NCBI GenBank assembly: GCA_030141605.1
Contig: JAQGDQ010000016.1
Location: forward strand, 198,282 to 262,281
DNA: 64,000 nucleotides
Direction: 5' to 3'
From: Tubiluchus corallicola
Taxonomy: Eukaryota; Priapulida; Priapulimorpha; Priapulimorphida; Tubiluchidae
This document shows positions 1,281 to 64,000 of this stretch, one piece after another. Position numbers and translations under genes: made by a program. The stretch's first letter is position 1, and every line of letters starts with the position of its first letter. Under the pieces are notes generated by a model that worked only from the letters and a program-made list of their open reading frames with translations, was not told the DNA's origin and did no database searches.

Positions 1281-4200
1281 CTGGTTCTGGAGAACGAGAA
1301 CCAGAAACATATTAAATTTCCGTATTGTCTATACAGATATGCACAATTGCACATGGCAGAAAGTGTACAAAAACACTTTACTGCAAACATGATAAAAAAA
1401 ATCAATAGTCAAGATAAAAATATTTAAACATCAAAATGTGTTCTACAAATGTGTATTATTAATGTGAAATGCTACATATGTTTTTCATATCTCATGTGAA
1501 CCTGGACAATAATAATAATAATAATATAATATGACAGGGAGTATGTAGATGCTATGCATTAAAATTTAATATTTTCATTTTCTTTGACTTTTTTGTTTAT
1601 TTCCACTAAAGTTAGATAGTTAATTATCATCTACACCAGCTCGCCACAACCATCTCCATCATTATTGCTGTTGTCGTTATCATCAACATCATCATCATCA
1701 TCATCAAAATCATCATTATAAATACTGGGCTTATTACGTTAAATTTAATGCTGAACTTGATTATTTTCAACAAAAAACATTAAAATGCAGAAGCTTAAAC
1801 ACATGTATACAAGTTTTTACTATTCACCAAGTGTGTTGCTTATTATTTGTGTACTAGAAAAACAGTGTTTCCACTCGATTTTTCAATAAATCAAAGAAAG
1901 TATACTTTCGAAAAAGCAAAGAAATGCACAATGAAACAATGTTTACTATGTTTATTGCCACAAAAAATCATATCTAAATCTTACCAAATGCTAGTCTGTC
2001 TGCTGGAGGTGCTTTGAAACAACCAGTGATCTCTGGAATTGTAAACCTGGGATCTGTTTCACCATCCTTAAGAGTGAGAGGATATAGTCGCAAAACGACG
2101 ATGGACCTTGGACCAATTCTATTCACACCAGATACAAGTTGCTGCAAAAGACGTGCAAATACCAAATACTTAAAATAAAATTGGTGAGTAAAAAAGTACC
2201 AGGTTTTAGTAGCTGTTTAATTTTGAAATATTCAAGATACAACCATATTGTTGAATTATTCAAGCATACAGCATCCAACAAAACAACAAGAATATCTGCA
2301 ATTAAAAACAAACAAAGAAAGTACTTATGCTAAAAAGTAAATGAAAATCATGTGCTTGAACTAACACTCAAAATAATTGCATTAATTAATTCTCCAGATT
2401 TCTGCCTTTCATGCAACATTTTCAATTATTATGTTCTCTATGTTATCTCTATTCTTATTTGTACAGAAGACTTGTTCAAATTTGAACTTTCAGGCAAGTT
2501 CTCACTACTTATTTAGCTGGCATACTGTTTTGCCGAAATACATAAAAATCACACACACACACTAAAGCTCAAGAAATCAAATTAATTACCGAGAAGTCAG
2601 AGAACTCTCCAGATTCAAAACATTCTTGTCTGGTGATAAAAATGTCACTTGTTTGTCTTTTGACAACAGATTTGCGAGAGCTTCCTGCTTTTGATGCCGA
2701 TGTGCCAGCTTTTCTACCAGCATTGGTTGCTTGTGTCCCAAACTTTTGTCGGACATTAGTAGTTCGTGTTCCACTCTTTGTACCAGCATTAGTTGCTTGT
2801 GTCCCAACCTTTCGTCCCACTTTAGCAGTTTGTGTTCCACTCTTTGTACCAGCATTGGTTGCTTGTGTCCCAAGCTTTTGTCGGACATTAGTAGTTCGTG
2901 TTCCACTCTTTGCACCAGCATTAGTTGCTTGTGTTCCAACCTTTCGTCCGACTTTAGTAGTTTGTGTTCCAGCTTTTGTACCAGCATTGGTTGCTTGTGT
3001 CCCAAACTTTCTTCGGACATTAGTAGTTCGTGTTCCACTCTTTGAACCAGCATTAGTTGCTTGTGTCCCAACCTTTTGTCCCACATTAGTAGTTTGTGTT
3101 CGAACTTTTGCACCAGCATTGGTTGCTTGTGTCCCAAACTTTCGTCGGACATTAGTAGTTCGTGTTCCACTCTTTGAACCAGCATTAGTTGCTTGTGTCC
3201 CAACCTTTTGTCCCACATTAGTAGTTTGTGTTCGAACTTTTGCACCAGCATTGGTTGCTTGTGTCCCAAACTTTCGTCGGACATTAGTAGTTCGGGTTCC
3301 ACTCTTTGAACCAGCATTAGTTGCTTGTGTCCCAACCTTTTGTCGAAGATTAGCAGTCTGTGGTCCAGCCTTTGTTCGTGTATTTGTAGAACTTCTGCCT
3401 GTATTTAACTTCCTTCCAACAACACCAGGCTCTGCAGCTGAAATCTGGGGAGCTTTAACTGTCTGTGCATTCTGATTACGAGATTCTGAAACACTTTCTT
3501 CATTCGGTATTTCATCACCTGTTGTTATTAAAGGTTCTTTACTGCGAGCAATTGGAAAGCCAGCATCCTCCCCAACAGAAGGACTATCAGATCTTAATAT
3601 TGTTACATCGGGTTCGGGACTTATCTCAATGCCAGTTCCCTCAGTACGATCTGGTGTTTTACTTGCACTGTCGGTTGGAGACTCTTTAGCACTTTGCAAA
3701 CTGATCTCTCCACCAGGAGGAAGACTTTGAGGTCTAGGGTTAATGTCCGGTCTAATTTCATTCATAGCAGAAGACTGTCTGATAGGGGAAGTAATTTCGT
3801 CGCTAACAAGACTTTCCGGTCTAGGGAGTGGAACATCAGGTTCAATGTTTAGATCACTATCGACACTATCATAAGGAATTTCTGCTCCATAAGGTTTGTA
3901 TTGTACTTTGAACTCTGCTACAGTTCCTTCAAGTGTAAGCCGAGATACTAGCACTGGCATACCACAATCACTTGTCAGTTTTACTTCAATGTAACAGTCA
4001 TCGGAATCCAATTCTTCTTTAGAACAAGTGAAACCACTGCCACCTAAAATCAATTATGAGATCAAAATAAAAGAATAAGAACGAATATTGAAATAATAGT
4101 TAGTGTACATAAAACAAGAAATCAGAAAAAATAAAAGTTCAGATTAATACTAATAAAAAATACCAGATAAAGCGATACAACTGCTACTCAGAGCATAGTA

Positions 4201-7200
4201 GTAGATTTAAAGACAGTTAAAAGTTCAAAAGTGTAGTTCTATTTCAAGCAATTGAAAATGAGCAAGGAAGTAAATCTGTAGTGCATGGATCACTAAATAG
4301 AAATGGTTGCATCATTAAATATACGAAAATAAGTGAAATATGAAAATTTTCATTAACTTGCCCGCAGTTAGCTAAAACAGTTAGAAAGTTAGAAAAACTA
4401 TACATTAGTCAATATTCGTAAAATCTTGAGTTTGAAAGCGTGAATGCACAAAAAAAAACTGTGCATGTGAAATAAGGCGAGTTTCCTATTCACAGAACCA
4501 CCAAAAGGCAGAAACTGCAAAACTATGCATGCTAGCTTGTGTGGTTGATTTATACAGGGAAAGTTGTTACACATGGATTTGTATGGCAGCCTACTAATAT
4601 TGTAGGATAAGCCAATCGGATTAGAACTGCATATAATTTTATGCCATGGGTATTTGGGAAGTTGGTAGATTTTTTTGATTAATTTATTTCTCAATTAGTA
4701 TCCCACTACTTAATGGATCTAATGCCACCCACAAAAAGTACACAAAAAGCAAATATTTCTACTTAGCCTTACAAATTGAGGCACAGTTTAAATGTAAACA
4801 GATAATTCACGAGCAAATTTTGAGATCACTGACAAAAAACTTTTTAACTGCAGTGAAAATGTTCTTCACAGCAACATACATTTAAGAGGTTACAGCAGGA
4901 CCTCTAAATTAATGTACCTTTACGGACAAGGCTGCCAACTGAATTTCCATCTTGATCTCGAACAGCTTCATTAGGAATAAGAGTATAATCAGCCATGCCA
5001 TTGACTTCATCACATTCTGCAACAAAAGTACCAATAATTTGTGGCTTTACCAAGATTTTCCCAGGAGTTTTCTAGTTCATTGAAAAACTCATTGCAAAAA
5101 TAGTTTACTGAAAAATATATTCTAAAAAGCTAAAATAAATAAGAGTGTCTTTATTTTTTGAATTACTCTGCTAAATAGCCACAAAAAATACTGTTTTATA
5201 TTCAGACAAGGCATATCTCAATGCGTTTTAGACATCTCCTTCAATTAATAAGCTTGTAGGCCAAATTACTTTAAGAACAATGTTCCTCTTAATGCCTGTC
5301 TTGGATAACTTATAGAAAGGTGCAGAGGGCTACAGTAAATTCACCTTGTTGACTACAAAATATATTAAAATATGGAGTTATATATCACTAGTATCAGAAA
5401 AGAGGCTCAAACAGATTATCTACTAAGGTGAGAATTCAGACCTGCTCTGCTATGCTGTCTCAGTCACTCGAATAGTACAGCATGCGCACTAAAAGTGCAA
5501 GGTTTCACGTTCAAGTCTTGACTGATGGGCCATAACATTTCAGTGCCATCTTTTTCAGTCATCTAGCTGTTAAGCTACCTGTTGTATTCCTCATAATGTG
5601 GGCATGTACAAGTGTGCGCAAGCACTTTTGTGCAGTACCATAGGGCACTAATGTAAACTGAAGAGTGATGCATAATACAGATGATAGTCTTGAAGCCGTA
5701 AATGAAGTCATTTCTACTATTTTGATGACAGAAAAAATTTAAGCAGAATTTACTGATGGTTTCTGTTATGACGATTGTGCAACATTCTTTTTAAAGCTTC
5801 AAGGAATCAAGTTTTTAGTGGAAATTCTCATGTTTAGTTCTCACGACATTAGATGAGAAGATGACTGGTATGTATTTCTGCCGATACTTTTTACTTTTAC
5901 AGCATATTACATTACTGAAATTATTTTTAGCACAAAATGAAAATGCAAAGCTCATTTGTCAGATCTAGTTCCACAATTTTGAATACAAGACAATTTAATC
6001 AAAATGCTAAACTCGTAGAATTACAGACACTAAAATGCTAATTACATTGACTTAACAATTACAAAGACTGAAAAGAGCATGTCTTTGAATGTACAAGCAA
6101 CCAGCATACATTAACTCCATCCAGACAGGTAAGTGATTCGCCCTAATCAATGAGAAACTGGCACTAGCAGGATAGTGAATATGTAGATATCACAAGTTAA
6201 AGAAGTATGGAATCTCAGTTCACTCTCACAAGGTTCCGAACTCAGAAATTTGTTAAGAACATTTAGAATTAATTTAGTTATTGAGGACAATACGATAATA
6301 ATGAAATGTTGGTACAAATTATGTTAGAAAAATGACAGATGTCCAGCATACCATGACTATTTATTTAACATCATAAAAAAACAGCTAAAAATAGATTTTA
6401 TAAATAAAGACTAAAGATGGGTAAAAATCATAAGTTTGCCTTCTGTAATGCCCGAGGTAAGGAAATATAGAAGCTGTATCTGGAGACTGTGGTAACAATC
6501 AACATTTTATGATACTCTCAAACTCCCTCAGTGAGATACAGTTAATTCTGTCATGTTATGTGCAAATCACCAAGTTGTAATATAAGAAAATCAGACACAC
6601 TTCATTAACTCTTAAACAAAAAATTGTATATAATAGTGCTCTTCATCCAGCGAAAAAATGTAAAAAATGAAGACATTGTACCTGGAGGTGATGGTGGTAG
6701 AAAACAACCTTTAATTTCTGGTAAATCAATAGGCCTATCAATGGGAGAATCACTAGTTCACGCTGTATCAAGCCAGTACGAAATCAATAAAGGAAACGTA
6801 TTTAAGCACTACTGAACTAGAAAGTGCAGTATTCAGTACTAAACTATGGAACTCAGGCAACACAAGAGACAAACTCTTATGCTAAATAGGGGAGTGGGAA
6901 TTGATTCAGTTGTTCCCTTTGCAGTTTACTAAAATGCAGTAGGTAAAATTCATACGGATACAGACAAAATAATTTATTAACATTATTAAATGTTATTATA
7001 ACATAATAAAACATATAAAACATTATTATAATGTTATTAACATTATAATAACATACCTGGAGGTGATGGTGGTAGAAAACAACCTTTAATTTCTGGTAAA
7101 TCAATAGGCCTATCAATNNNNNNNNNNNNNNNNNNNNNNNNNNNNNNNNNNNNNNNNNNNNNNNNNNNNNNNNNNNNNNNNNNNNNNNNNNNNNNNNNNN

Positions 7201-10200
7201 NNNNNNNNNNNNNNNNNGGCAACACAAGAGACAAACTCTTAGGCTCCATAGGGGAGTGGGAATTGATTCAGTTGTTCTTTTTGCAGATTACTAAAATGCA
7301 GTAGGTGAAATTCATACGGATACAGACAAAATAATTTATGTTCGTAACATTGTTCCAGTAGCTATAGGCAAACATAAGAAATTCTACCTGGAGGTGGTGG
7401 TGGTACAAAGCAACCTTTAATTTCTGGTACAGTAAATCGAGCTTCATTTTCTCCATCTTTCAGCTTGACCGGATACAGACGAAAAACAGTAACTTGTCTT
7501 GGACCAATTTTATTAATGCCAGAAAACGCACGCTGAAAAAGCATTTGACAAGAGTGAGTAAAATGTGCTGAAATGCAGTCAAAATACAACTTTCTGCCTT
7601 TCATGAAACATTTTCAATTATCGTGTTCTCTATATTATCTCTTTTCATATTTGTACAGAAGACTTGTTCATATTTGAACTTTCTGGCAAGTTCTCACTAC
7701 TTATTTAGCTGGCATACTGTTTCGACGAAATACATAAAAATCATACACACACACACTAAAGTTCAAGAAATCAAATTAATTACCGAGAAGTCAGAGAACT
7801 CTCCGGATTCAAAACATTCATGTCTGGTGACAAAAATGTCATTTGTTTGTCTTTTGACAACAGATTTGCGAGAGCTGCCTGCTTTTGATGCCGATGTGCC
7901 AGCTTTTCTACCAGCATTAGTTGCTTGTGTTCCAACCTTTCGTCCGACTTTAGTAGTTTGTGTTCCAGCTTTTGTACCAGCATTGGTTGCTTGTGTCCCA
8001 AACTTTCGTCGGACATTAGTAGTTCGTGTTCCACTCTTTGAACCAGCATTAGTTGCTTGTGTCCCAACCTTTTGTCCCACATTAGTAGTTTGTGTTCGAA
8101 CTTTTGCACCAGCATTGGTTGCTTGTGTCCCAAACTTTCGTCGGACATTAGTAGTTCGTGTTCCACTCTTTGAACCAGCATTAGTTGCTTGTGTCCCAAC
8201 CTTTTGTCGAAGATTAGCAGTCTGTCGTCCAGCTTTTGTTCGTGTATTTGTAGAACTTCCACCTGTATTTAACTTCCTTCCAACAATACCAGGCTCTGCA
8301 GCTGAAATCCGGGGAGCTTTAACTGTCTGTGCATTCTGATTAGGAGATTCTGAAACATTTTCTTCATTCGGTATTTCATCACCTGTTGTTATTAAAGGTT
8401 CTTTACTGCGAGCAATTGGAAAGCCAGCCTCCTCCCCATCAGAAGGACTATCAGACCTTAATATTGTTACATCAGGTTCGGGACTTATCTCAATGCCAGT
8501 TCCCTCAGTACGATCTGGTGTTTTACTTGCACTGTCGGTTGGAGACTCTTTAGCACTTTGCAAACTGATCTCTCCACCAGGAGGAAGACTTTGAGGACTA
8601 GGGTTAATGTCCGGTCTAATTTCATTCATAGCAGAAGACTGTCTGATAGGGGAAGTAATTTCGTTGCTAACAAGACTTTCCGGTCTAGGGAGTGGAACAT
8701 CAGGTTCAGTGTTTAGATTAATATCGTCTCTTCTTCTGTTGCCTGGTGATTTATTTTCATTCACAAAGGAAGATTCTGGAGTTTGAGTGTCAAAATATTC
8801 TGTTCCATAAGGCTTGTATTGCACTTTGAACTCTGCTACAGTTCCTTGAAGAGTTAGCTGGGATACTAGTACAGGCATACCACAATCACTTGTCAGTTTT
8901 ACTTCAATATAACAGTCATCGGAATCCAATTCTTCTTTAGAACAAGTGAATCCATCACCATCTGAAAGCAAATTTTTATATATTATGTAACGTGTAACTA
9001 AATAACAAAAACTTATCTATTTCTAGACATTGCATTGACGTCACAAACAAGAGAAGGAATCTTAGCCTCACAAACAATAAATACAAAAATCATACCTTTC
9101 CTGACAAGGTTGCCAACAACATTTCCATCCTGATCCCTGATAGCCTCATTGGGAATAATGTCGTGATCAGATATACCATTAACTTCGTCACACTCTACAA
9201 AAGAGCAAAAATGACACACACATTTTCAAGAAAAACTATATAAACTATATAAACAGGTCAGCTAAATATATCCTGCGTAATACATAGTTACGAATAGCTA
9301 AACCAACTGATATCATAGCTAAGAGAAAAGCAAATGAGCACGTGTTAGACAAAACCATCACACTGCTATTTGAAAAAAGATTTAAAAGACACAGAAATCA
9401 TATAAACGTATGAAAGCATGCTAAATTAGGTCCAAAAGATTTTGTATCTTCACAGTTCCATTCAGGGTAAAGTTTTCTGATGCGAATTTTCTGCCTGGAG
9501 TAAACTTACCAGTGTGAAGTGCTTTATGAGTTACTATCAGCAAGACATTGCCAACTCTGCGACAGTTGCCACAAGCTAGTTTACAGTCTAATATGATACC
9601 TCTGTGAGTTTACTCTCAACAGCTCCTAGCACTTCTTACAGGAAATAGAGACAAGTTTATTCACTGTGAGAACTTGTGAAATATCCAAGCTACTGCAGAG
9701 ATCAGCAATTTGTCCACAGTAACTTCTTTTTAGTCTGAATGCTGTAGCAAAATTTGTCCCAAGATTAATTCATAGGAGATTTTGCTTTAAAATGTGAACC
9801 CTCTTGCAAGTTTGGTGGGGAGTTACAAGTCTTTTTGAAAACACATCAATCTGAATCTGTCACAACACACTATAGGCCTATCACTGGGAGAATCACTAGT
9901 TCACGCTGTATCAAGCCAGTACGAAATCAATAATGGAAACGTATTTAAGCAATACTGAACTAGAAAGTGCAGTATTCAGTACTAAACTATGGAACTCAGG
10001 CAACACAAGAGACAAACTCTTAGGCTCCATAGGGGAGTGGGAATTGATTCAGTTGTTCTTTTTGCAGATTACTAAAATGCAATAGGTGAAATTCACATGG
10101 ATACAGACAAAATAATTTATGTTCACAGCATTCTTTTAGTAGCTATAAACGGATGTAAGAAATTGTACCTGGAGGTGGTGGAGGTACAAAGCAACCTTTA

Positions 10201-13200
10201 ATTTCTGGTACAGTAAATCGAGCTTCATTTTCTCCATCTTTGAGCTTGACCGGATACAGACGAAAAACAGTAACTTGTCTTGGACCAATTTTATTAATGC
10301 CAGAAAACGCACGCTGAAAAAACATTTGACAAGAGTGAGTAAAATGTGCTGAAATGCAGTCAAATACAACTTTCTGCCTTTCATGCAACATTTTCAATTA
10401 TCGTGTTCTCTATATTATCTCTATTCATATTTGTACAGAAGACTTGTTCATATTTGAACTTGCTGGCAAGTTCTCACTTCTTATTTAGCTGGCATTCTGT
10501 TTTGACGAAATACATAAAAATCATACACACACACTAAAGCTCAAGAAATCAAATAAATTACCGAGAAGTCAGAGAACTCTCCGGATTCAAAACATTCATG
10601 TCTGGTGACAAAAATGTCATTTGTTTGTCTTTTGACAACAGATTTGCGAGAGCTGCCCGCTTTTGATGCCGATGTGCCAGCTTTTCTACCAGCATTAGTT
10701 GCTTGTGTTCCAACCTTTCGTCCGACTTTAGTAGTTTGTGTTCCAGCTTTTGTACCAGCATTGGTTGCTTGTGTCCCAAACTTTAGTCGGACATTAGTAG
10801 TTTGTGTTCCACTCTTTGAACCAGCATTAGTTGCTTGTGTCCCAACCTTTTGTCCCACATTAGTAGTTTGTGTTCGAACTTTTGCACCAGCATTGGTTGC
10901 TTGTGTCCCAAACTTTCGTCGGACATTAGTAGTTCGTGTTCCACTCTTTGAACCAGCATTAGTTGCTTGTGTCCCAATCTTTTGTCCCACATTAGTAGTT
11001 TGTGTTCGAACTTTTGCACCAGCATTGGTTGCTTGTGTCCCAAACTTTCGTCGGACATTAGTAGTTCGTGTTCCACTCTTTGAACCAGCATTAGTTGTTT
11101 GTGTCCTAACCTTTTGTCCCACATTAGTAGTTTGTGTTCGAACTTTTGCACCAGCATTGGTTGCTTGTGTCCCAAACTTTCGTCGGACATTAGTAGTTCG
11201 TGTCCCACTCTTTGAACCAGCATTAGTTGCTTGTGTCCCAACCTTTTGTCGAAGATTAGCAGTCTGTCGTCCAGCCTTTGTTCGTGTATTTGTAGAACTT
11301 CCACCTGTATTTAACTTCCTTCCAACAATACCAGGCTCTGCAGCTGAAATCCGGGGAGCTTTAACTGTCTGTGCATTCTGATTAGGAGATTCTGAAACAT
11401 TTTCTTCATTCGGTATTTCATCACCTGTTGTTATTAAAGGTTCTTTACTGCGAGCAATTGGAAAGCCAGCCTCCTCCCCAACAGAAGGACTATCAGACCT
11501 TAATATTGTTACATCGGGTTCGGGACTTATCTCAATGCCAGTTCCCTCAGTACGATCTGGTGTTTTACTTGCACTGTCGGTTGGAGACTCTTTAGCACTT
11601 TGCAAACTGATCTCTCCACCAGGAGGAAGACTTTGAGGTCTAGGGTTAATGTCCGGTCTAATTTCATTCATAGCAGAAGACTGTCTGATAGGGGAAGTAA
11701 TTTCGTCGCTAACAAGACTTTCCGGTCTAGGGAGTGGAACATCAGGTTCAATGTTTAGATCACTATCGACACTATCATAAGGAATTTCTGCTCCATAAGG
11801 TTTGTATTGTACTTTGAACTCTGCTACAGTTCCTTCAAGTGTAAGCCGAGATACTAGCACTGGCATACCACAATCACTTGTCAGTTTTACTTCAATATAA
11901 CAGTCATCGGAATCCAATTCTTCTTTAGAACAAGTGAATCCATCACCATCTGAAAGCAAATTTTTATATATTACGTAACGAGTAACTAAATAACAAAAAC
12001 TTATCTATTTCTAGACATTGCATTGATGTCACAAACAAGAGAAGGAATTTTAGCCTCACAAACAATAAATACAAAAATCATACCTTTCCTGACAAGGTTG
12101 CCAACAACATTTCCATCCTGATCCCTGATAGCCTCATTGGGAATAATGTCATGATCAGATATACCATTAACTTCGTCACACTCTACAAAAGAGCAAAAAT
12201 GACACACACATTTTCAAGAAAAACTATATAAACAGGTCAGCTAAATATATCCTGCGTAATACATAGTTACGAATAGCTAAACCAACTGATATCATAGCTA
12301 AGAGAAAAGCAAATGAGCACGTGTTAGACAAAACCATCACACTGCTATTTGAAAAAAGATTTAAAAGACACAGAAATCATATAAACGTATGAAAGCATGC
12401 TAAATTAGGTCCAAAAGATTTTGTATCTTCACAGTTCCATTCAGGGTAAAAAGTTTTCTGATGCGAATTTTCTGCCTGGAGTAAACTTACCAGTGTGAAG
12501 TGCTTTATGAGTTACTATCAGCAAGACATTGCCAACTCTGCGACAGTTGCCACAAGCTAGTTTACAGTCTAATATGATACCTCTGTGAGTTTACTCTCAA
12601 CAGCTGCTAGCACTTCTTACAGGAAATAGAGACAAGTTTTATTCACTGTGAGAACTTGTGAAATATTCAAGCTACTACAGAGATCAGCAATTTGCCCACA
12701 GTAACTTCTTTTTAGTCCGAGTGCTGTAGCAAGATTTGTCACGAGATTAATTCATAGGAGATTTTGCTTTAAAATGTGAACCCTCTTGCAAGTTTGGTGG
12801 GGAGTTACAAGTCTTTTTGAAAACACATCAATCTGAATCTGTCACAACACACTATAGGCCTATCAATGGGAGAATCACTAGTTCACGCTGTATCAAGCCA
12901 GTACGAAATCAATAAAGGAAACGTATTTAAGCACTACTGAACTAGAAAGTGCAGTATTCAGTACTAAACTATGGAACTCAGGCAACACAAGAGACAAATC
13001 CTTATGCTCCATAGGGAGTGGGAATTGATTCAGTTGTTCTTTTTGCAGATTACTAAAATGCAATAGGTGAAATTCACATGGATACAGACAAAATAACTTA
13101 TGTTCACAGCATTCTTTTAGTAGCTATAAACGGATGTAAGAAATTGTACCTGGAGGTGGTGGAGGTACAAAGCAACCTTTAATTTCTGGTACAGTAAATC

Positions 13201-22200: not shown

Positions 22201-25200
22201 ACTTTCGTCGGACATTAGTAGTTTGTGTTCCACTCTTTGAATCAGCATTAGTTGCTTGTGTCCCAACCTTTTGTGGAAGATTAGCAGTCTGTGGTCCTGC
22301 CTTTGTTCGTGTATTTGTAGAACTTCTGCCTGTATTTAACTTCCTTCCAACAACACCAGGCTCTGCAGCTGAAATCCGGGGAGCTTTAACTGTCTGTGCA
22401 TTCTGATTAGGAGATTCTGAAACATTTTCTTCATTTGGTAATTCTCCGGCAGGCTTCGCCAGATTAGCAGGAAAACTAATTTGTGAGCCAACAGGAGGAC
22501 TTTCTGCTCTTACGTCTGCAACATCAGCTATAATTGCACTCACAGGAGGAGGTTGTTCAGCTGGCTGACGGCTAAGCTTAGATTTTAAAATTGTAACATC
22601 AGGTTCAATGTTTAGATCACTATCGACACTATCATAAGGAATTTCAGCTCCATAAGGTTTGTATTGTACTTTGAACTCTGCGACAGTTCCTTCAAGTGTA
22701 AGCTGAGATACTAGCACTGGCATATCACAATCACTTGTTAGTTTAACCTCAATATAACATTCGTCAGAATCCAACTCTTCTTTAGAACAAGTAAATCCAT
22801 CACCATCTGAAAACAAATATTTATACATTACATAACTTGTAACTAAACAACAAAAATGTGTATTTTTGCCATTACGCTGATGTCATCAATAACCGAAGGG
22901 AACATGGCCTCACAAACAACATAAACAAAAATCACACCTTTTCTGACAAGGTTTCCAACAACATTTCCATCCTGATCCCTGATAGCCTCATTGGGAATAA
23001 GGTCGTAATCAGATATGCCATTAACTTCGTCACATTCTACAAGAGAGTAAAAATACCACACTAATTTCCAAGAAAATCTATATAAACAGGTCAGCTAAAT
23101 ATATCCTGTGTAACACACGGTTAAGTCGATCAAATTAAAAATGGCTAAACCAATAGATACAAAAGCTAGGAGAAAAATCAAATTAGTACGTAATAGATAA
23201 AACCATCACACCAGTAAAAAAGGATTTCCAATACAAATAAATCATATAAACGTATGAAAGCTTTGCCAAAATAGTTCCAGAAATTTTAGACCGCCACGTG
23301 GATGTTCAGTGTGAAAAGTTTTGTGTAGTAAGTTTTCTGTCTGGCAGTAAACTTGCCATTGTGGACTGTTGTGCGAGTTATTATCAGCAAGAAATTGCAA
23401 ACTCTGCAACAGTTGCTGCCAGACCATAGAGATAAGCAACTTGCCAAAAGTAATTTCTTTCTAGTCTAAATGCTGCTGCAAGATATGTCACGAGATTAAC
23501 TAGTAGGAGATTTTGCTTTTTAATGTGAACCCCTTGCAAGTTTTTTGGCAAGTTACTTTCAAGTATTCTTGAAAACTCGAATGTGTCATAAACCATTACA
23601 GGTATATCAATGGGAGAATTACTAGCTCAAACTGTGTCAAGATAGTACGGAATTAGAAATTGCAGTATTCAATACTCAACTTTTGATCTTAGCCAATATT
23701 AAAGACGAAATGCTATGCTCCCTAGGCGAATGGGAACTAATTCAGTTATTACCTTTGCAGATTACGAAATTATGGTAGATAAATCCATATGCATTTGATA
23801 TACATACGGACAAAACAATTAATGTTCGTAACATTGTTCCAGTAGCTGTAGGCAAACATAAGAAATTTTACCTGGAGGTGGTGGTGGTACAAAGCAACCT
23901 TTAATTTCTGGTACAGTAAATCGAGCTTCATTTTCTCCATCTTTGAGCTTGACCGGATACAGACGAAAAACAGTAACTTGTCTTGGACCAATTTTATTAA
24001 TGCCAGAAAACACACGCTGAAAAAACATTTGACAAGAGTGAGTAGAATGTGCTGAAATACAGTCAAATACAACTTTCTGCCTTTCATGCAACATTTTCAA
24101 TTATTGTGTTCTCTATCTTATCTCTATTCATATTTGTACAGAAGACTTGTTCATATTTGAACTTTCTGGCAAGTTCTCACTACTTATTTAGCTGGCATAC
24201 TGTTTTGCCGAAATACATAAAAATCATACAGTTAAAGGCAACTACAAGAATGAGTTTAAGGATCAGTTATTATGCCCAGTGTGTGAGGAAGATGATGACA
24301 CTACTGAACATGTGCTTAGATGTTACAGATATGGAGAATGGAAAAAAAATTTGAACTCAGACGTATTAATGAACAGTGAAAAGGAAGGATTGCTAGAAAT
24401 TAGAAATCTAGTGAACTAATGTATGGAATACAGGATAAAGACAAATAAAGACATTAAATTTGGAAAAGACAAATAAAAGATCAGCGTTAAAAAAGAATAG
24501 ACTTCGCACCCTATAAAGGTGCCCGCCTCTGATAGGTGGAGAGAGTCGAGTATCGCAATCGCAATACACACACACTAAAGCTCAAGAAATCAAATTAATT
24601 ACCGAGAAGTCAGAGAACTCTCCAGATTCAAAACATTCATGTCTGGTGACAAAAATGTCATTTGTTTGTCTTTTGACAACAGATTTGCGAGAGCTGCCTG
24701 CTTTTGATGCCGATGTGCCAGCTTTTCTACCAGCATTAGTTGCTTGTGTTCCAACCTTTCGTCCCACATTAGTAGTTCGTGTTCCAGCTTTTGTACCAGC
24801 ATTGGTTGCTTGTGTTCCAAACTTTCGTCGGACATTAGTAGTTCGTGTCCCACTCTTTGAACCAGCATTAGTTGCTTGTGTCCCAACCTTTCGTCCCACT
24901 TTAGCAGTTTGTGTTCCAACTTTTGTACCAGCATTGGTTGTTTGTGTCCAAAACTTTCGTCGGACATTAGTAGTTTGTGTTCCACTCTTTGAACCAGCAT
25001 TAGTTGCTTGTGTCCCAACCTTTTGTCGAAGATTAGCAGTCTGTGGTCCAGCCTTTGTTTGTGTATTTGTAGAACTTTTCCCTGTATTTAACTTCCTTCC
25101 AACAATACCAGGCTTTGCAGCTGAAATCTGGGGAGCTTTAACTGTCTGTGCATTCTGATTAGGAGATTCTGAAACATTTTCTTCATTTGGTAATTCTCCG

Positions 25201-28200
25201 GCAGGCTGCGCCAGATTAGCAGGAAAACTAATTTGTGAGCCAACAGGAGGACTTTCTGCTCTTACGTCTGTAACATCAGGTATAATTGCACTCACAGGAG
25301 GAGGTTGTTCAGCTGGCTGACGGCTAAGCTTAGATTTTAAAATTGTAACATCAGGTTCAATGTTTAGATCACTATCGACACTATCATAAGGAATATCTGC
25401 TCCATAAGGTTTGTATTGTACTTTGAACTCTGCGACAGTTCCTTCAAGTGTAAGCTGAGATACTAGCACTGGCATATCACAATCACTTGTTAGTTTAACC
25501 TCAATATAACATTCGTCAGAATCCAACTCTTCTTTAGAACAAGTAAATCCATCACCATCTGAAAACAAATGTTTATACATTACATAACATGTAACTAAAC
25601 AACAAAAATGTGTATTTTTGCCATTACGCTGATGTCATCAATAACCGAAGGGAACATAGCCTCACAAACAATAAACACAAAAATCACACCTTTTCTGACA
25701 AGGTTTCCAACAACATTTCCATCCTGATCCCTGATAGCCTCATTGGGAATAAGGTCGTAATCAGATATGCCATTAACTTCGTCACATTCTACAAGAGAGT
25801 AAAAATACCACACTAATTTCCAAGAAAAACTATATAAACAGGTCAGCTAAATATATCAAGTGTAACACACGGTTAAGTCGATCAAATTAAAAATGGCTAA
25901 ACCAATAGATACAAAAGCTAAGAGAAAAATCAAATTAGTACGTAATAGACAAAACCATCACACCAGTAAAAAAGGATTTCCAATACAAATAAATCATATA
26001 AAAGTATGAAAGCTTTGCCAAATTAGTTCCAGAAATTTTAGACCGCCACGTGGATGTTCAGTGTGAAAAGTTTTGTGTAGTAAGTTTTCTGTCTGGCAGT
26101 AAACTTGCAAATGTGGACTGTTGTGAGAGTTATTATCAGCAAGAAATTGCAAACTCTGCAACAGTTGCTGCGAGCCCATAGAGATAAGCAACTTGCCAAA
26201 AGTAATTTCTTTCTAGTCTAAATGCTGCTGCAAGATATGTCACGAGATTAACTAGTAGGAGATTTTGCTTTTTAATGTGAACCCCTTGCAAGTTTTTTAG
26301 CGAGTTACTTTCACGCATTCTTGAAAACTCGTAAGTCTGAATGTGTCATAAACCATTACAGGTCTATCAATGGGAGAATTACTAGCTCAAACTGTGACAA
26401 GATAGTACGAATTAGAAATTGCAGTATTCAATACTCAACTTTTGATCTTAGCCAATATTAAAGACGAAATGCTATGCTCCCTAGGCGAATGGGAACTAAT
26501 TCAGTTATTACCTTTGCAGATTACGAAATTATGGTAGATAAATTCATATGCATTCGATACACATACAGACAAAACAATTAATGTTCGTAACATTGTTCCA
26601 GCAGCTATAGGCAAACATAAGAAATTTTACCTGGAGGTGGTGGTGGTACAAAACAACCTTTAATTTCTGGTACAGTAAATCGAGCTTCATTTTCTCCATC
26701 TTTGAGCTTGACCGGATACAGACGAAAAACAGTAACTTGTCTTGGACCAATTTTATTAATGCCAGAAAACACACGCTGAAAAAACATTTGACAAGAGTGA
26801 GTAGAATGTGCTGAAATGCAGTCAAATACAACTTTCTGCCTTTCATGCAACATTTTCAATTATCGTGTTCTCTATATTATCTCTATTCATATTTTTACAG
26901 AAGACTTGTTCATATTTGAACTTTCTGGCAAGTTCTCACTACTTATTTAGCTGGCATGCTGTTTCGACGAAATACATAAAAATCATACACACACACTAAA
27001 GCTCAAGAAATCAAATTAATTACCGAGAAGTCAGAGAACTCTCCAGATTCAAAACATTCATGTCTGGTGACAAAAATGTCATTTGTTTGTCTTTTGACAA
27101 CAGTTTTGCGAGAGCTGCCTGCTTTTGATGCCGATGTGCCAGCTTTTCTACCGGCATTAGTTGCTTGTGTTCCAACCTTTCGTCCCACATTAGTAGTTCG
27201 TGTTCCAGCTTTTGTACCAGCATTGGTTGCTTGTGTTCCAAACTTTCGTCGGACATTAGTAGTTCGTGTCCCACTCTTTGAACCAGCATTAGTTGCTTGT
27301 GTCCCAATCTTTCGTCCCACTTTAGCAGTTTGTGTTCCAACTTTTGTACCAGCATTGGTTGTTTGTGTCCAAAACTTTCGTCGGACATTAGTAGTTTGTG
27401 TTCCACTCTTTGAACCAGCATTAGTTGCTTTTGTCCCAACCTTTTGTCGAAGATTAGCAGTCTGTGGTCCAGCCTTTGTTTGTGTATTTGTAGAACTTTT
27501 CCCTGTATTTAACTTCCTTCCAACAATACCAGGCTTTGCAGCTGAAATCTGGGGAGCTTTAACTGTCTGTGCATTCTGATTAGGAGATTCTGAAACATTT
27601 TCTTCATTTGGTAATTCTCCGGCAGGCTGCGCCAGATTAGCAGGAAAACTAATTTGTGAGCCAACAGGAGGACTTTCTGCTCTTACGTCTGCAACATCAG
27701 GTATAATTGCACTCACAGGAGGAGGTTGTTCAGCTGGCTGACGGCTAAGCTTAGATTTTAAAATTGTAACATCAGGTTCAATGTTTAGATCACTATCGAC
27801 ACTATCATAAGGAATTTCTGCTCCATAAGGTTTGTATTGTACTTTGAACTCTGCGACAGTTCCTTCAAGTGTAAGCTGAGATACTAGCACTGGCATATCA
27901 CAATCACTTGTTAGTTTAACCTCAATATAACATTCGTCAGAATCCAACTCTTCTTTAGAACAAGTAAATCCATCACCATCTGAAAACAAATGTTTATACA
28001 TTACATAACATGTAACTAAACAACAAAAATGTGTATTTTTGCCATTACGCTGATGTCATCAATAACCGAAGGGAACATAGCCTCACAAACAATATAAACA
28101 AAAATCACACCTTTTCTGACAAGGTTTCCAACAACATTTCCATCCTGATCCCTGATAGCCTCATTGGGAATAAGGTCGTAATCAGATATGCCATTAACTT

Positions 28201-31200
28201 CGTCACATTCTACAAGAGAGTAAAAATACCACACTAATTTCCAAGAAAAACTATATAAACAGGTCAGCTAAATATATCAAGTGTAACACACGGTTAAGTC
28301 GATCAAATTAAAAATGGCTAAACCAATAGATACAAAAGCTAAGAGAAAAATCAAATTAGTACGTAATAGACAAAACCATCACACCAGTAAAAAAGGATTT
28401 CCAATACAAATAAATCATATAAAAGTATGAAAGCTTTGCCAAATTAGTTCCAGAAATTTTAGACCGCCACGTGGATGTTCAGTGTGAAAAGTTTTGTGTA
28501 GTAAGTTTTCTGTCTGGCAGTAAACTTGCAAATGTGGACTGTTGTGAGAGTTATTATCAGCAAGAAATTGCAAACTCTGCAACAGTTGCTGCGAGCCCAT
28601 AGAGATAAGCAACTTGCCAAAAGTAATTTCTTTCTAGTCTAAATGCTGCTGCAAGATATGTCACGAGATTAACTAGTAGGAGATTTTGCTTTTTAATGTG
28701 AACCCCTTGCAAGTTTTTTAGCGAGTTACTTTCACGCATTCTTGAAAACTCGTAAGTCTGAATGTGTCATAAACCATTACAGGTCTATCAATGGGAGAAT
28801 TACTAGCTCAAACTGTGACAAGATAGTACGAATTAGAAATTGCAGTATTCAATACTCAACTTTTGATCTTAGCCAATATTAAAGACGAAATGCTATGCTC
28901 CCTAGGCGAATGGGAACTAATTCAGTTATTACCTTTGCAGATTACGAAATTATGGTAGATAAATTCATATGCATTCGATACACATACGGACAAAACAATT
29001 AATGTTCGTAACATTGTTCCAGCAGCTATAGGCAAACATAAGAAATTTTACCTGGAGGTGGTGGTGGTACAAAACAACCTTTAATTTCTGGTACAGTAAA
29101 TCGAGCTTCATTTTCTCCATCTTTGAGCTTGACCGGATACAGACGAAAAACAGTAACTTGTCTTGGACCAATTTTATTAATGCCAGAAAACACACGCTGA
29201 AAAAACATTTGACAAGAGTGAGTAGAATGTGCTGAAATGCAGTCAAATACAACTTTCTGCCTTTCATGCAACATTTTCAATTATCGTGTTCTCTATATTA
29301 TCTCTATTCATATTTTTACAGAAGACTTGTTCATATTTGAACTTTCTGGCAAGTTCTCACTACTTATTTAGCTGGCATGCTGTTTCGACGAAATACATAA
29401 AAATCATACACACACACTAAAGCTCAAGAAATCAAATTAATTACCGAGAAGTCAGAGAACTCTCCAGATTCAAAACATTCATGTCTGGTGACAAAAATGT
29501 CATTTGTTTGTCTTTTGACAACAGATTTGCGAGAGCTGCCTGCTTTTGATGCCGATGTGCCAGCTTTTCTACCGGCATTAGTTGCTTGTGTTCCAACCTT
29601 TCGTCCCACATTAGTAGTTCGTGTTCCAGCTTTTGTACCAGCATTGGTTGCTTGTGTTCCAAACTTTCGTCGGACATTAGTAGTTCGTGTCCCACTCTTT
29701 GAACCAGCATTAGTTGCTTGTGTCCCAATCTTTCGTCCCACTTTAGCAGTTTGTGTTCCAACTTTTGTACCAGCATTGGTTGTTTGTGTCCAAAACTTTC
29801 GTCGGACATTAGTAGTTTGTGTTCCACTCTTTGAACCAGCATTAGTTGCTTTTGTCCCAACCTTTTGTCGAAGATTAGCAGTCTGTGGTCCAGCCTTTGT
29901 TTGTGTATTTGTAGAACTTTTCCCTGTATTTAACTTCCTTCCAACAATACCAGGCTTTGCAGCTGAAATCTGGGGAGCTTTAACTGTCTGTGCATTCTGA
30001 TTAGGAGATTCTGAAACATTTTCTTCATTTGGTAATTCTCCGGCAGGCTGCGCCAGATTAGCAGGAAAACTAATTTGTGAGCCAACAGGAGGACTTTCTG
30101 CTCTTACGTCTGCAACATCAGGTATAATTGCACTCACAGGAGGAGGTTGTTCAGCTGGCTGACGGCTAAGCTTAGATTTTAAAATTGTAACATCAGGTTC
30201 AATGTTTAGATCACTATCGACACTATCATAAGGAATTTCTGCTCCATAAGGTTTGTATTGTACTTTGAACTCTGCGACAGTTCCTTCAAGTGTAAGCTGA
30301 GATACTAGCACTGGCATATCACAATGACTTGTTAGTTTAACCTCAATATAACATTCGTCAGAATCCAACTCTTCTTTAGAACAAGTAAATCCATCACCAT
30401 CTGAAAACAAATGTTTATACATTACATAACATGTAACTAAACAACAAAAATGTGTATTTTTGCCATTACGCTGATGTCATCAATAACCGAAGGGAACATA
30501 GATATAAACAAAAATCACACCTTTTCTGACAAGGTTTCCAACAACATTTCCATCCTGATCCCTGATAGCCTCATTGGGAATAAGGTCGTAATCAGATATG
30601 CCATTAACTTCGTCACATTCTACAAGAGAGTAAAAATACCACACTAATTTCCAAGAAAAACTATATAAACAGGTCAGCTAAATATATCCTGCATAATACA
30701 TAGTTAAGAATAGCTAAACCAACTGATATCAAAACTAAGAGAAAATCAAATGAGCACGTGATAAACAAAACCATCACACTGCTATTTGAAAAAAGATTTA
30801 CAAGACAAAGAAATCATATAAACGTATCAAAGCATGCTAAATTAGGTCCGAAAGATTTTGCAACTTCACTGGTACATTCAGGGTGAAAAGTTTTCTGATG
30901 CGAATTTTCTGCCTGGAGTAAACTTACCAGTGTGAAGTGCTTTATGAGCTACTATCAGCAAGACATTGCCAACTCTGCAACAGTTGCCACAAGCTAGTTT
31001 ACAGTCTAATATGACACCTCTGTAAGTTTACTCTCAACAGCTCCTAACACTTCTTGCAGGAAATAGAGACAAGTTTTATTCACTGTGAGAACTTGTGAAA
31101 TATCCAAGCTACTACAGAGATCAGCAATTTGTCCATAGTAACTTCTTCTTAGTCCAAATGCTGCAGCAATAGCCAAGATATATATTTTACGACTAGGCAA

Positions 31201-34200
31201 AAAAAACAACTATAATACTTAGTTAATGAACAAATACTCTTACCATTTGGGGGTGGTGTGAAGCAACCAGTGATTTCTGGGATGGTAAACCTGGCTTGTA
31301 CCTCATTGTCTTTCAATTTAACTGGGTAGATCCGCAATACTGTAGCTCGTCTTGGATGAATTTCGTTGCGACCAGACCATAAAACCTACAAATGAAGTAG
31401 CAACTCATAGTAAAACATGGACACACCAAAAAACTCGTGTAAACCTTGTTTTCAGAAATCAAACAGAATCAAGCTCTATCCATAACCATGGCCATACCAT
31501 CCTATATATTATGCTAAATTTTAAACATAATTTTAATATATTATGCTGAAAAATCTTGCCAGCAATATGCTTTTGACAAAAAGTTATAAACACTTTTAAC
31601 AATGGTCACTTGGAATCTTGCTATCATTACAGTTTATTAATTAGCACTGATGTAATATATGCAATTTTCAAACACATTAAACTATATTAAAGTAATATGA
31701 ATAAAAGCTGGCATTGTAAAATCTGGCAATAAATAAAATCTTAGTTTCCGAATGTTTAGTTTCCAAAATGCTCCACGTAAAGCACTATAAACAGTCAGGA
31801 CAATGAACATTCCAAAGTACTTGGAAATATGCAATACTGTTAAAACTATTTTAAAAGTAAACTGGTTATAGAAAAAGTATATTCTCTACTGGTGAATAAG
31901 TATATCTGTGCATGTCATAAGCAAATAAGCTGTTCACTAGTCATCTGTGCATGCATAAGCAAATTAATATTAAATTTTTTTGCTGGTCAGAAACAAAACT
32001 GTTCATTTATGTAAAATTGTGAAGTTTTGTCTCTGGCAAGTTAAAGATTTCATATAAATACATGCAAGTAGGTTCAAACATGTTCAACTACTCACACAGC
32101 GTACAATTTTTTCAGCAACCAGTTTATTTTGATATCTTTGTAACAATATAAGTCTATTATTTCAGGATGCTTGTTTTTGTTTTCCTGAACATTGATAACG
32201 CTTTACATACAGCAAAATGTTTGGTAAATAAAGAGATATATTAATGTAACTACATAATTACCAGGGAACTGGAAAAATCGCCATCACACTCTTCATCAAT
32301 AATATCGCTTGCTTGTCTCTTCACTATAGACTTTCTAGAACTGCCTGCTTTTGTCCCAGCTTTAGTTCCAGTATTAAATGCTCCAGTCATTCTCGCTGCT
32401 GTTCTAACATTAGCACCCAGTGTTCCGACCTTTGTTCCAGCGTTAGTAGCCTGTGTACCTGTTTTTGTTCCAATGTTAGTAGCCCGTGTACCTGTTTTTG
32501 TTCCAACGTTAGTAGCCCGTGTACCTGTTTTTGTTCCACTGTTAGAGCCAAGTGTTCCAGCTTTTGTTCCGCTGTTAGTGGTAAGTGTTCCAACTTTTGT
32601 TCCAAATGTTCTAGATTGTTTTCTAGCAGTTAGACCACTAGTCTCATCTGCTAGCACTGGAGCAGGAATTGGCACACTTGGTGGTGCAGCAGGTGGTACA
32701 TCTGGTGCAGCAGCAGGTAGAGTTGGTACAACAGCTGGTGCACTTGGTACAGCAGCTGGCATACTTGGTACAGCAGGTGCGTCTTCTGCACCAAAGGGGT
32801 TTCTTGATGCTCCCATTATTGCTTCTAATGGGTTCACACCGCCTGCAGGTTTTGCTTCACTAGTCTCTCTGAATTCCATCGTAAATTGTTTCTCGCCAGG
32901 TTCTTGAGGTTTATACTGCACTTTATACTCAGCTACTGTTCCCTCTAGCCTAAGCTGAGATATTATAACTGGCACATCGCAATCGTTTGTTAGCACAACT
33001 TCCACGTAACAGTCATCAGAGTTTAACTCGCCCTCAGAACAAATGAAGCCACTGCCACCTGTAAATTTTTCATATCATCAAAACTGCTGAGCAAGTTAAA
33101 AAAGTAATAAACAAACTTATAGACTAAAATAAAAATCAATTAATGCATTAATGTTACTTATCATGGTGCAAAAGAATCTAGCTGAGAAACCACAGTTTCT
33201 CATCCCAAGACTGACACCAGTTCATCAGACCAAAGGCCTCACACTTGATTACCTGCACTTTTTTAAAGATTTTGGCAAGCTGCAAGCCAGAATCCAGCAG
33301 CCAAAGGCATGGCCTGCTGAAAATACTATTTGTAGCAAAACTGGAGCCACAAAGAGGACATTGGATGCGCCAGTAAACTGCCAGCTGTGTAATAGCCAAG
33401 GATTACAAATAATAACACCTAGAGTGAATGTTGTGCTCAAGGAGCCAGACCCCATTAATGTGAAAGCTCTCATGCCTATCCAGCCAGCCGTGAATCCACT
33501 ACTGCATAAGACTTCCTATATACATTTTATAATGTCAGCAAATTAAGTCTTCATACCTTGCCTAAGCAAATCTCCTACCACCTGACCATCCTGATTTGTG
33601 ATTCGATAATTAGGAATCACCCTTTCATCTGCCATTCCATTGAGTTCTTCACATTCTGCAATCATGATCAAATAAAACTTATTCTGGCAATGAAGGGACA
33701 TCTTAGCAACATAATTGCTTACGTTAAAAAAAGTAACGTAAGTAAAAACAGCTTACAAACAAAAGGTAAAACAAACAAACTTCAGCTCGAAGCAGTGCAA
33801 AGTTTCAAGCCAAAGCTTTTTATATATACAATAAAAAATAAATTTATAACATTTTCTTGGCTAGGTTAAACAAGCGAAATCAAAAAATAGAAGTAAACAA
33901 TCACAACTCATCCATGACTGACTGACTGACTAACAAAATGGCTAACTAATTAACTAATTATATTTAACCAAAGATAATAGCACATTAGTTACCGAACGGT
34001 TTATTTTGTTTGACTTAAAGGTCGAAAATTAAATTCTACCTGACTTGTCATAGCAACCAGAAACATCAGGAACAGTAAATTTGGCTTCTGTCGCACCGAG
34101 AGCGAGTTTCGTTGGAAACAATCGTATAGCACTAACTCTCTTTCCTACCCGTATTACTCCAGATAACACCTATAAGCAGAAAAATGGGAATTAACGAAAA

Positions 34201-47612: not shown

Positions 47613-47644
<32 letters not shown>

Positions 47645-63538: not shown

Positions 63539-64000
63539 CTTAAACAAATTAAATAAAACCTTGTTACAATAGTTGCTTTATCATAAAATTATGGCTAGTA
63601 AAACTGCCAGATACGGTCCAAAATTAATCAGATACATAATACAGTTAACAAAAGCTTGCTAAAACCTGCTGGGTAACTGCTGATTAATCTAAAGCTAGAA
63701 AAAGCCTACTACAACTCCCTTTCATTATTGCAACAGTTATGGTGCTATGATGTATTGACATTAGATGCCACTTACAACAGCAGGTTCCCACAGATTTTTT
63801 AAATAACATTACTGACTTTTTCATGACCAAATACTGAGTTTCCATGACCAAGATAAGCATAAATTGCATTAACAGTATACATATTCAAATATTTTTGAGT
63901 ATGGACATTCATACATATACAGATATATATAATGTGTCAGCACAGTTGCAGTAGTGCTAACGAAATTACACCAATCACGTCAAATAAACTTTCTTAATCC

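What the first reader, a model, noticed from the sequence alone, without database searches (positions are those of the whole stretch)
2590..33058. Discoidin fold interrupted by a repetitive basic insert in eleven consecutive domains
In domains 4-14 the insert lies between the [11 protein letters not shown] strand and the strands coded by exon C, inside the globular domain. It comprises an acidic or Pro/Ala-rich spacer, an array of 11-residue Thr/Gly/Lys/Arg repeats and a conserved VKRQ tail. The frame and flanks are kept in every copy, so the insert is tolerated and probably selected. I know of no described protein family built this way.
Basis: partly seen in the sequence, partly recalled or inferred. 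Interest (0 to 1): 0.85.

Follow-up and report, generated by a model that had tools for sequence, protein, structure and literature searches.

The report
Discoidin-like domains with long charged loops
An animal gene for a giant, apparently secreted, mucus- or glue-like protein carries a row of discoidin-like domains, each interrupted at the same loop by a long positively charged repeat with a likely cutting site; the parts are familiar, the arrangement looks unusual.

Summary
On the minus strand, 11 of 11 consecutive domains (exons A-B-C, window 33655-1985) are open and correctly phased. Each has 198-413 residues between the strand ending QYK and exon C: an acidic spacer, a basic 11-residue-repeat array and a VKRQ tail. 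A twelfth, one domain upstream, lies on its own phase 0-0 exon (35544-34921), order reversed. Upstream the gene resembles the first part of SCO-spondin: VWD/C8/TIL, then LDLa modules.

The F5/8C identity is remote. No Pfam hit in three of the eleven domains tested. Domains 4-14 match insert-free domains 1-2 (hhalign 98.8%), which match real F5/8C (about 90%; whole family 0 of 200 shuffles).

Frame keeping is no evidence of selection: the unit is 33 bp. Core and tail are constrained (dN/dS 0-0.22 and 0.04); the array signal is mixed.

Best reading: a cohesive secreted matrix or adhesive protein whose loops are polycationic, probably disordered side chains, probably nicked at VKR|Q. Function and cutting are inferred. 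Novelty: new variant of known adhesive/mucin-like proteins.

The parts
44846..44986 (-). domain 1 exon A (no insert; reference F5/8C-like domain)
   Evidence: splice sites by eye; translation
44492..44631 (-). domain 1 exon B, ends ...[17 protein letters not shown] (hairpin without insert)
43590..43731 (-). domain 1 exon C
   Evidence: domain 1 has a weak PF00754 match, E 0.0074
42300..43015 (-). domain 2 (A+B in one exon, then C; no insert); outer limits approximate
39788..39886 (-). domain 3 exon A (start inferred; gives the 99-nt length of the other A exons)
38357..38523 (-). domain 3 exon B, ends [12 protein letters not shown], phase 0
34921..35544 (-). domain 3 separate array exon, phase 0-0: STRVKRQ, then TKxGT array (charge +14), then Pro/Ala-rich spacer
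34040..34169 (-). domain 3 exon C
33557..33655 (-). domain 4 exon A
32262..33058 (-). domain 4 exon B; insert 32909-32316 (198 aa)
   Evidence: insert limits computed
31244..31385 (-). domain 4 exon C
30521..30619 (-). domain 5 exon A
29445..30400 (-). domain 5 exon B; insert 30251-29511 (247 aa)
29052..29196 (-). domain 5 exon C
28111..28209 (-). domain 6 exon A
27024..27979 (-). domain 6 exon B; insert 27830-27090 (247 aa)
26631..26775 (-). domain 6 exon C
25690..25788 (-). domain 7 exon A
24603..25558 (-). domain 7 exon B; insert 25409-24669 (247 aa)
23872..24016 (-). domain 7 exon C
22938..23036 (-). domain 8 exon A
21851..22806 (-). domain 8 exon B; insert 22657-21917 (247 aa)
21458..21602 (-). 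domain 8 exon C
20512..20610 (-). domain 9 exon A
19122..20377 (-). domain 9 exon B; insert 20228-19188 (347 aa)
18729..18873 (-). domain 9 exon C
17662..17760 (-). domain 10 exon A
16272..17527 (-). domain 10 exon B; insert 17378-16338 (347 aa)
15879..16023 (-). domain 10 exon C
14932..15030 (-). domain 11 exon A
13543..14798 (-). domain 11 exon B; insert 14649-13609 (347 aa)
13150..13294 (-). domain 11 exon C
12084..12182 (-). domain 12 exon A
10562..11949 (-). domain 12 exon B; insert 11800-10628 (391 aa)
10169..10313 (-). domain 12 exon C
9096..9194 (-). domain 13 exon A
7784..8961 (-). domain 13 exon B; insert 8812-7850 (321 aa)
7388..7532 (-). domain 13 exon C
4918..5016 (-). domain 14 exon A
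2590..4043 (-). domain 14 exon B; insert 3894-2656 (413 aa)
1985..2141 (-). domain 14 exon C
1182..1280 (-). domain 15 exon A (no insert)
284..504 (-). domain 15 exon B without insert (loop [25 protein letters not shown]); its exon C is not seen (N run)
45885..50560 (-). six LDLa modules of the same gene (about 50.5k, 48.9k, 48.5k, 47.9k, 47.1k, 46.0k), upstream of domain 1
   Evidence: three over the Pfam cut-off singly, two tested as a pair (77.8 bits, two stretches), 47.1k just under (21.7 of 24.1 bits)
40733..40981 (-). LDLa-like module between domains 2 and 3 (23.5 bits, cut-off 24.1)
50656..63577 (-). VWD, C8 and TIL modules of the same gene (more lie upstream of the window, to about 78 kb in window coordinates)
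   Evidence: exon joins by eye

Best explanation
This is part of one very large animal gene, read on the minus strand, built like the first part of SCO-spondin or an invertebrate adhesive/mucin-like cohesive protein (EGF, then VWD/C8/TIL modules, LDLa modules), followed by at least fifteen divergent F5/8C (discoidin-like) domains. In domains 3-14 the hairpin after the strand FKVQYK was replaced by a long, probably disordered loop: an acidic or Pro/Ala-rich spacer, a strongly basic Thr/Gly/Lys/Arg array and a KR|Q motif that fits the furin rule. Inferred mechanism: the VWD/C8/TIL part multimerises the chain, the discoidin-like domains form a rod or bind glycans, and each loop is displayed as a polycationic side chain (+17 to +49 in domains 4-14) that binds polyanions such as sulfated mucin, acidic partners or its own acidic spacers, giving cohesion to a secreted gel or glue. 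A proprotein convertase probably nicks each loop at VKR|Q; disulfides C1-C6 and C4-C5 would hold the two halves together. Shown: anatomy, phases, architecture, charge blocks, conservation of tail and core. Inferred: secretion, disorder, cleavage, disulfides, cohesion. The loops spread by tandem duplication and by exchange of exon B between domains.
For: Open, phased A-B-C frames in 11 of 11. Modules by Pfam: VWD E 1e-10, 2e-28, 6e-39; two C8; four TIL; LDLa; EGF. F5/8C link: domains 4-14 (four rows) vs domains 1+2 hhalign 98.8%; domains 1+2 vs F5/8C 89.5-90.4%; whole family vs F5/8C scores 34.5 and 34.7 against shuffle maxima of 20.4 and 15.2, 0 of 200 in each of two tests. Charge: spacer -7 to -18 and array +17 to +49 in 11 of 11. 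Tail dN/dS 0.04 and core 0.11 between domains 4 and 9. VKR|Q satisfies the furin rule (recalled: Arg at P1 and two of P2/P4/P6 basic) in 11 of 11; domain 3 has RVKR|Q (judged by eye). C4 and C5 flank the loop in 12 of 12 of domains 4-15; neither is seen in domains 1-3 and two downstream domains, 5 of 5 (sequences). The array is not a dispersed satellite: of 44 matches listed (a lower bound) 37 are on this contig, two are a broken fragment on C1846, five are weak, E 0.077 or worse. Published cohesive proteins combine VWD/C8/TIL with Lys/Arg-rich low-complexity stretches (passages: PMC9229212, PMC6745481).
Against: No transcript, signal peptide or protein evidence was seen. The exon B fold model proves nothing (mean pLDDT 31.8). 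Domains 4-14 alone hardly match F5/8C (hhalign 1.8-4.6%), the family without domain 1 21.5-41.8%, two downstream domains alone 3.5-5.4%; the PF00754 genome search gave 19 matches, none on this contig. Array units show no third-position excess within types. Other furin-like sites before VKRQ are not significantly depleted: none in 5 of 11 inserts, one each in 6 of 11; shuffled arrays give means 0.41-2.01. The strongest 11-residue harmonic at 98 degrees and a sub-cut-off apolipoprotein match (E 5.6e-7) suggest the array might instead be helical. A third C8 candidate gave only a TIL match.
Confidence: 0.5

Rival explanations
1. The array is a neutral or parasitic coding minisatellite that happened to land at a tolerant loop and was carried along by tandem duplication; it has no function of its own.
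For: 33-bp units keep the frame whatever happens; no third-position excess in units of one type; array dN/dS 0.27-0.81 for the closer pairs, spacer up to 1.3; domains 5 and 6 99.3-100% identical part by part including introns.
Against: Array motif, basic charge and VKRQ persist in three diverged forms (domains 3, 4, 5-14), once on a separate exon; array dN/dS 0.31-0.33 between domain 4 and domains 5, 9, 14 (protein-guided alignment favours low dN); tail strongly constrained; few matches elsewhere in the genome.
Confidence: 0.25
2. The array is removed or made optional by splicing, so the mature domains are ordinary discoidin domains.
For: In domain 3 the array exon is symmetric (0-0) and skippable; in exon B of domain 9 cryptic donors reach 6-7 of 9 consensus letters, where I count 6 by hand for the real exon B donor.
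Against: With donors of at least 6 of 9 near the insert start and acceptors of at least 7 of 12 pyrimidines near its end, no in-frame pair is found in 6 of 11 domains and one, with a GTC donor, in 5 of 11 (domains 9-13); the VKRQ tail shows coding constraint.
Confidence: 0.12
3. The array is a membrane- or lipid-binding amphipathic 11-residue-repeat helix (apolipoprotein/perilipin type) rather than a disordered polycation.
For: Sub-threshold Pfam apolipoprotein match to the insert of domain 9 (E 5.6e-7, 29.9 bits, cut-off 90); hydrophobic moment strongest at 98 degrees among five harmonics in 4 of 4 arrays tested (of 11); permutation p 0.016 for the 11-mer [11 protein letters not shown] before correction for five harmonics.
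Against: Very rich in Gly, Thr, Asn; no confident helix in the model; repeats easily give spurious profile matches; only a chance-level match in solved structures (E 0.39).
Confidence: 0.1
4. The domains are not F5/8C domains but another beta-rich extracellular fold.
For: No Pfam F5/8C match for three of domains 4-14 tested, nor for domain 2; none in the PDB with a family profile; removal of domain 1 from the profile drops hhalign to 21.5-41.8%.
Against: Collinear matches through domains 1-2; 0 of 200 shuffles in two tests; first and last Cys, RIYP and the EIxGCF end look typical of F5/8C (recalled).
Confidence: 0.1

Closest known systems
P-vulgata_3, SCO-spondin-like pedal mucus protein of the limpet Patella vulgata (PMC7333891, passages), and SCO-spondin
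   Same: C8, VWD, TIL and LDLa modules
   Different: no discoidin tandem or loop arrays in the passages seen; SCO-spondin has many TSP1, none of the 78 TSP1 matches listed lies on this contig
Flatworm cohesive proteins ap1/ap3 with GRK repeats (PMC9229212, PMC6745481; passages)
   Same: VWD/C8/TIL core together with long Lys/Arg-rich low-complexity stretches; threonine-rich repeats in ap2
   Different: basic stretches flank the core or form a separate protein; C-type lectin and EGF are listed, F5/8C is not in the passages; not inside a domain
Sea urchin Nectin (PMC10057474, passages)
   Same: tandem discoidin domains in an adhesive secretion
   Different: six FA58C domains, no loop arrays or VWD/LDLa in the passages seen
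Sea star footprint proteins Sfp1/Sfp2 (PMC9382459, passages)
   Same: giant cohesive VWD-type proteins cut into subunits
   Different: cutting is described as autocatalytic; that the GDPH motif lies in VWD domains is from an abstract in a listing (PMC10880436); not at KR|Q in loops

Membership tests
F5/8C (discoidin) domain, PF00754 | profile match over the curated cut-off | tested here: not met
   three of domains 4-14 tested, none; domain 1 E 0.0074, 16.8 bits, cut-off 28.2 (0.0025 with a wrong join)
F5/8C (discoidin) domain, PF00754 | remote profile similarity, collinear | tested here: met
   family vs F5/8C 67.4% and 69.6%, 0 of 200 shuffles each; domains 4-14 reach it through domains 1-2 only
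F5/8C (discoidin) domain, PF00754 | beta-sandwich fold | not testable with these tools
SCO-spondin | VWD/C8/TIL repeats followed by LDLa modules | tested here: met
SCO-spondin | many TSP1 repeats | tested here: not met
   0 of 78 genome matches on C2; contig gaps remain and counts are lower bounds, so not a proof of absence
SCO-spondin | C-terminal cystine knot | not tested
   3' end of the gene lies in or beyond gaps
temporary-adhesion cohesive proteins (ap1, Sfp1, P-vulgata_3) | VWD-C8-TIL multimerisation modules | tested here: met
   modules present; multimerisation untested
temporary-adhesion cohesive proteins (ap1, Sfp1, P-vulgata_3) | expression in adhesive or mucus glands | not testable with these tools
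   no transcripts; species unnamed
proprotein-convertase substrates | Arg at P1 with two of P2/P4/P6 basic (rule recalled) | tested here: met
   VKR|Q 11 of 11, RVKR|Q in domain 3 by eye; cleavage itself untested
apolipoprotein A1/A4/E repeats, PF01442 | profile match over cut-off | tested here: not met
   29.9 and 20 bits, cut-off 90

The most novel reading that the evidence does not exclude
A natural molecular bottlebrush: a discoidin rod in which every domain's hairpin is a furin-nicked loop, so that each domain becomes two chains pinned by two disulfides (C1-C6, C4-C5) and each basic array becomes a free-ended polycationic bristle, preceded by an acidic block near the rod: a self-contained coacervating glue made from one gene, with exon B as the exchangeable cassette.
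Probability: 0.2. Interest if true: 0.8.

Novelty: new variant of a known kind. Interest (0 to 1): 0.5.

Why it matters
If translated and cut as proposed, it shows how a compact binding domain can be turned into a holder for long charged side chains without breaking the domain, twelve times in a row, and gives a concrete sequence design for cohesive underwater or mucus materials. It may also catch an intermediate: in domain 3 the loop is still a separate, skippable exon, while in domains 4-14 it is part of exon B and is exchanged between domains as a unit.

Tried and rejected
Tried without result: Pfam on joined cores; PDB by sequence for a core, a family profile and the array (E 0.03, nothing, E 0.39); COX1 and GFP families to place the organism (no match, and for GFP nothing rang in the controls either), so the species stays unknown. 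Structure of exon B alone: mean pLDDT 31.8, not usable, so no fold search was made. Considered and rejected: array as genome-wide satellite; frame keeping as proof of selection (33-bp unit); depletion of other furin-like sites as support for cutting (not significant). My first hhalign and profile sets used eye-made joins that were wrong by a few residues (domain 1; domains 2 and 3 in all five); one search repeats the hhalign tests from coordinates, mostly with slightly lower values (whole family 86.8% and 75.8% before, 67.4% and 69.6% after), and its values are used, save for the two downstream domains alone. Domain 14 figures were computed with a truncated exon C, so they cover exons A and B in effect.


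Full report
What is there. The window is C2:198282-262281 of an animal-type genome of 343.5 Mb. One gene on the minus strand fills most of it. Upstream exons, some beyond the window, read EGF, VWD, C8 and TIL modules (VWD E 1e-10, 2e-28, 6e-39; C8 E 1e-15 and 6e-14; four TIL E 2e-7 to 4e-11; a third C8 candidate did not match) and LDLa modules. Exon joins in those tests were approximate. After them come at least fifteen repeated domains. More lie downstream: two were read at C2:174.8-177.4 kb (+), and part of them again on the minus strand, because the assembly holds a 5,000-bp stretch twice in opposite orientation (99.98%) beside large runs of N.

The repeated domain. Each of domains 4-14 is coded by exon A (99 nt in 11 of 11), exon B and exon C with phases 1, 1, 0, 1 and GT-AG borders. 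The joined frames have no stop in 11 of 11 (labels there are one lower; exon C of domain 14 corrected). Insert lengths are 198, 247 (four times), 347 (three times), 391, 321 and 413 residues. The spacer carries -7 to -18 net charges, the array +17 to +49, and 136 array units of 11 residues were recognised, the commonest being [11 protein letters not shown] (19) and [11 protein letters not shown] (17). The insert ends in VKR|Q in 11 of 11.

A twelfth insert. In domain 3, exon B ends at [12 protein letters not shown] in phase 0, and exon C starts in phase 0. Between them lies a separate phase 0-0 exon, 35544-34921, which reads STRVKRQ, then an array of TKxGT units (+14 in 74 residues), then a Pro/Ala-rich spacer. 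So the same three elements occur at the same place, in the opposite order, on a skippable exon. In domains 4-14 they are part of exon B.

Is it discoidin? By Pfam, no: none for the cores of domains 4 and 9 and the whole of domain 5, none for domain 2 or two downstream domains, and none of the 19 PF00754 matches in the genome lies on this contig. Domain 1, which has no insert and reads ...[21 protein letters not shown]..., matches PF00754 at E 0.0074, under the cut-off. By hhalign with seven (or the four closest) F5/8C sequences of the same genome: domain 1 alone 74-94%; domains 1+2 89.5-90.4%; the whole family 67.4% and 69.6% with scores 34.5 and 34.7 against maxima of 20.4 and 15.2 in 200 column shuffles each; four of domains 4-14 alone 1.8-4.6%; the family without domain 1 21.5-41.8%; two downstream domains alone 3.5-5.4%. 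Domains 4-14 (the same four rows) match domains 1+2 at 98.8%. I take the F5/8C identity as likely but remote, resting on domains 1-2 as a bridge. A PDB search with a family profile found nothing. The insert falls where domain 1 has the hairpin SEDG. That this hairpin lies away from the ligand-binding spikes of F5/8C domains is recalled, not tested.

Selection and history. Over nine pairs the core has dN/dS 0-0.22. Between domains 4 and 9 it is 0.11 for the core, 0.31 for the array, 0.71 for the spacer and 0.04 for the 13-codon tail with VKR; synonymous change is near saturation, so these are rough, and the protein-guided alignment of repeats pulls array dN down. The tail contrast (6 of 9 synonymous against 2 of 30 nonsynonymous sites) has Fisher p 0.0006; between domains 4 and 14 the tail ratio is undefined, and among recent copies the tail hardly varies. 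Within the closer pairs the array gives 0.27-0.81 and the spacer up to 1.3. Minor-base frequencies by codon position were 0.123/0.076/0.126 and 0.156/0.083/0.096 in the two unit types (no third-position excess) and 0.200/0.156/0.242 pooled. Domain 14 has an exon A 75% identical to that of domain 9 but an insert 97.5% identical, with dS 0.33 in exon A plus B core against 0.009-0.029 in the insert: exon B was exchanged between domains. Domains 5 and 6 are 99.3-100% identical part by part, introns included.

Cutting and disulfides. With the recalled furin rule, VKR|Q qualifies in 11 of 11 and RVKR|Q in domain 3 by eye. Other qualifying sites before it: none in domains 4, 9, 10, 11 and 14, one each in domains 5-8, 12 and 13; shuffled arrays give means of 0.41-2.01 and shuffled whole inserts 0.24-1.54, so there is no significant depletion. 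Every domain 4-14 has six cysteines; C4 and C5 sit on either side of the loop in 12 of 12 of domains 4-15 (exon C of 15 not seen) and neither is seen in domains 1, 2, 3 and two downstream ones. If C1-C6 and C4-C5 pair, a cut at VKR|Q would leave each domain in two linked chains. Pairing is inferred.

Shape of the loop. AlphaFold on exon B of domain 5 with the 11-row alignment gave mean pLDDT 31.8 and block means of 23-37 over the loop; a model this poor says little. Hydrophobicity has its strongest 11-residue harmonic at 98 degrees in 4 of 4 arrays tested (of 11), permutation p 0.016 for one 11-mer before correction for five harmonics, and the inserts of domains 9 and 5 match apolipoprotein under the cut-off; a helical alternative is kept as a rival.

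Genome and literature. The array query listed 44 places, a lower bound: 37 on this contig, two on C1846, five weak. The domain 3 array listed four: itself and three at E 0.53 or worse. The exon C query listed 18 places, 17 on C2 and one at E 0.65; the exon B core 15 of 15 on C2. The domain family thus appears nearly confined to this locus. Paper searches (listings) and passages of six papers show relatives in kind: flatworm cohesive proteins with Gly/Arg/Lys-rich stretches beside VWD/C8/TIL, a limpet SCO-spondin-like mucus protein, a rotifer SCO-spondin-like fibre protein, sea star proteins cut into subunits, sea urchin Nectin with six discoidin domains. None of what I saw described a basic array inside a discoidin domain; no paper was read whole and most subscription journals are not held.

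Verdict. A real, orderly feature of a giant protein with secreted-type modules; most likely a cohesive matrix or adhesive component whose loops act as charged side chains, probably cut at VKR|Q. It is a new variant of a known kind.

Noticed in passing
G000 C1846, about 166214-166578 and 11684-11893 (L008, L009): Two copies, in surroundings 92-94% identical to each other, of a broken fragment of the insert (end of spacer, array, VKR and a few residues more) without the discoidin strands, outside the gene.
   Followed up: partly
window 7267-7046 and 6783-6608: Extra exon-C-like pieces ([18 protein letters not shown]) between domains 13 and 14, next to the 100-N gap: remnants of a lost or misassembled domain.
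   Followed up: no
window 24192-24416 (+), in the B-C intron of domain 7: About 340 extra bases with an open frame ([17 protein letters not shown]) that looks, from recall, like the end of a non-LTR retrotransposon; the same intron is 248-251 bp in domains 5, 6 and 8-13.
   Followed up: no
G000 C2:175642-180641 (+) and C2:188282-193281 (-): A 5,000-bp stretch of the same gene, 99.98% identical, stands twice in opposite orientation beside N runs: likely an assembly error at the 3' part of the gene.
   Followed up: partly
G000 C1893:472700-507272: A TSP1-rich locus on another contig, 23 TSP1 matches by my count; a candidate for a fuller SCO-spondin relative.
   Followed up: no
window 2546-3472 (+) and other arrays: The 33-bp arrays are open in several frames and on both strands at once, which makes mechanical ORF lists misleading here.
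   Followed up: no
G000 C31, C1798 and C2237: The same two F5/8C matches appear on three contigs, two with equal coordinates: duplicate contigs in this assembly.
   Followed up: no
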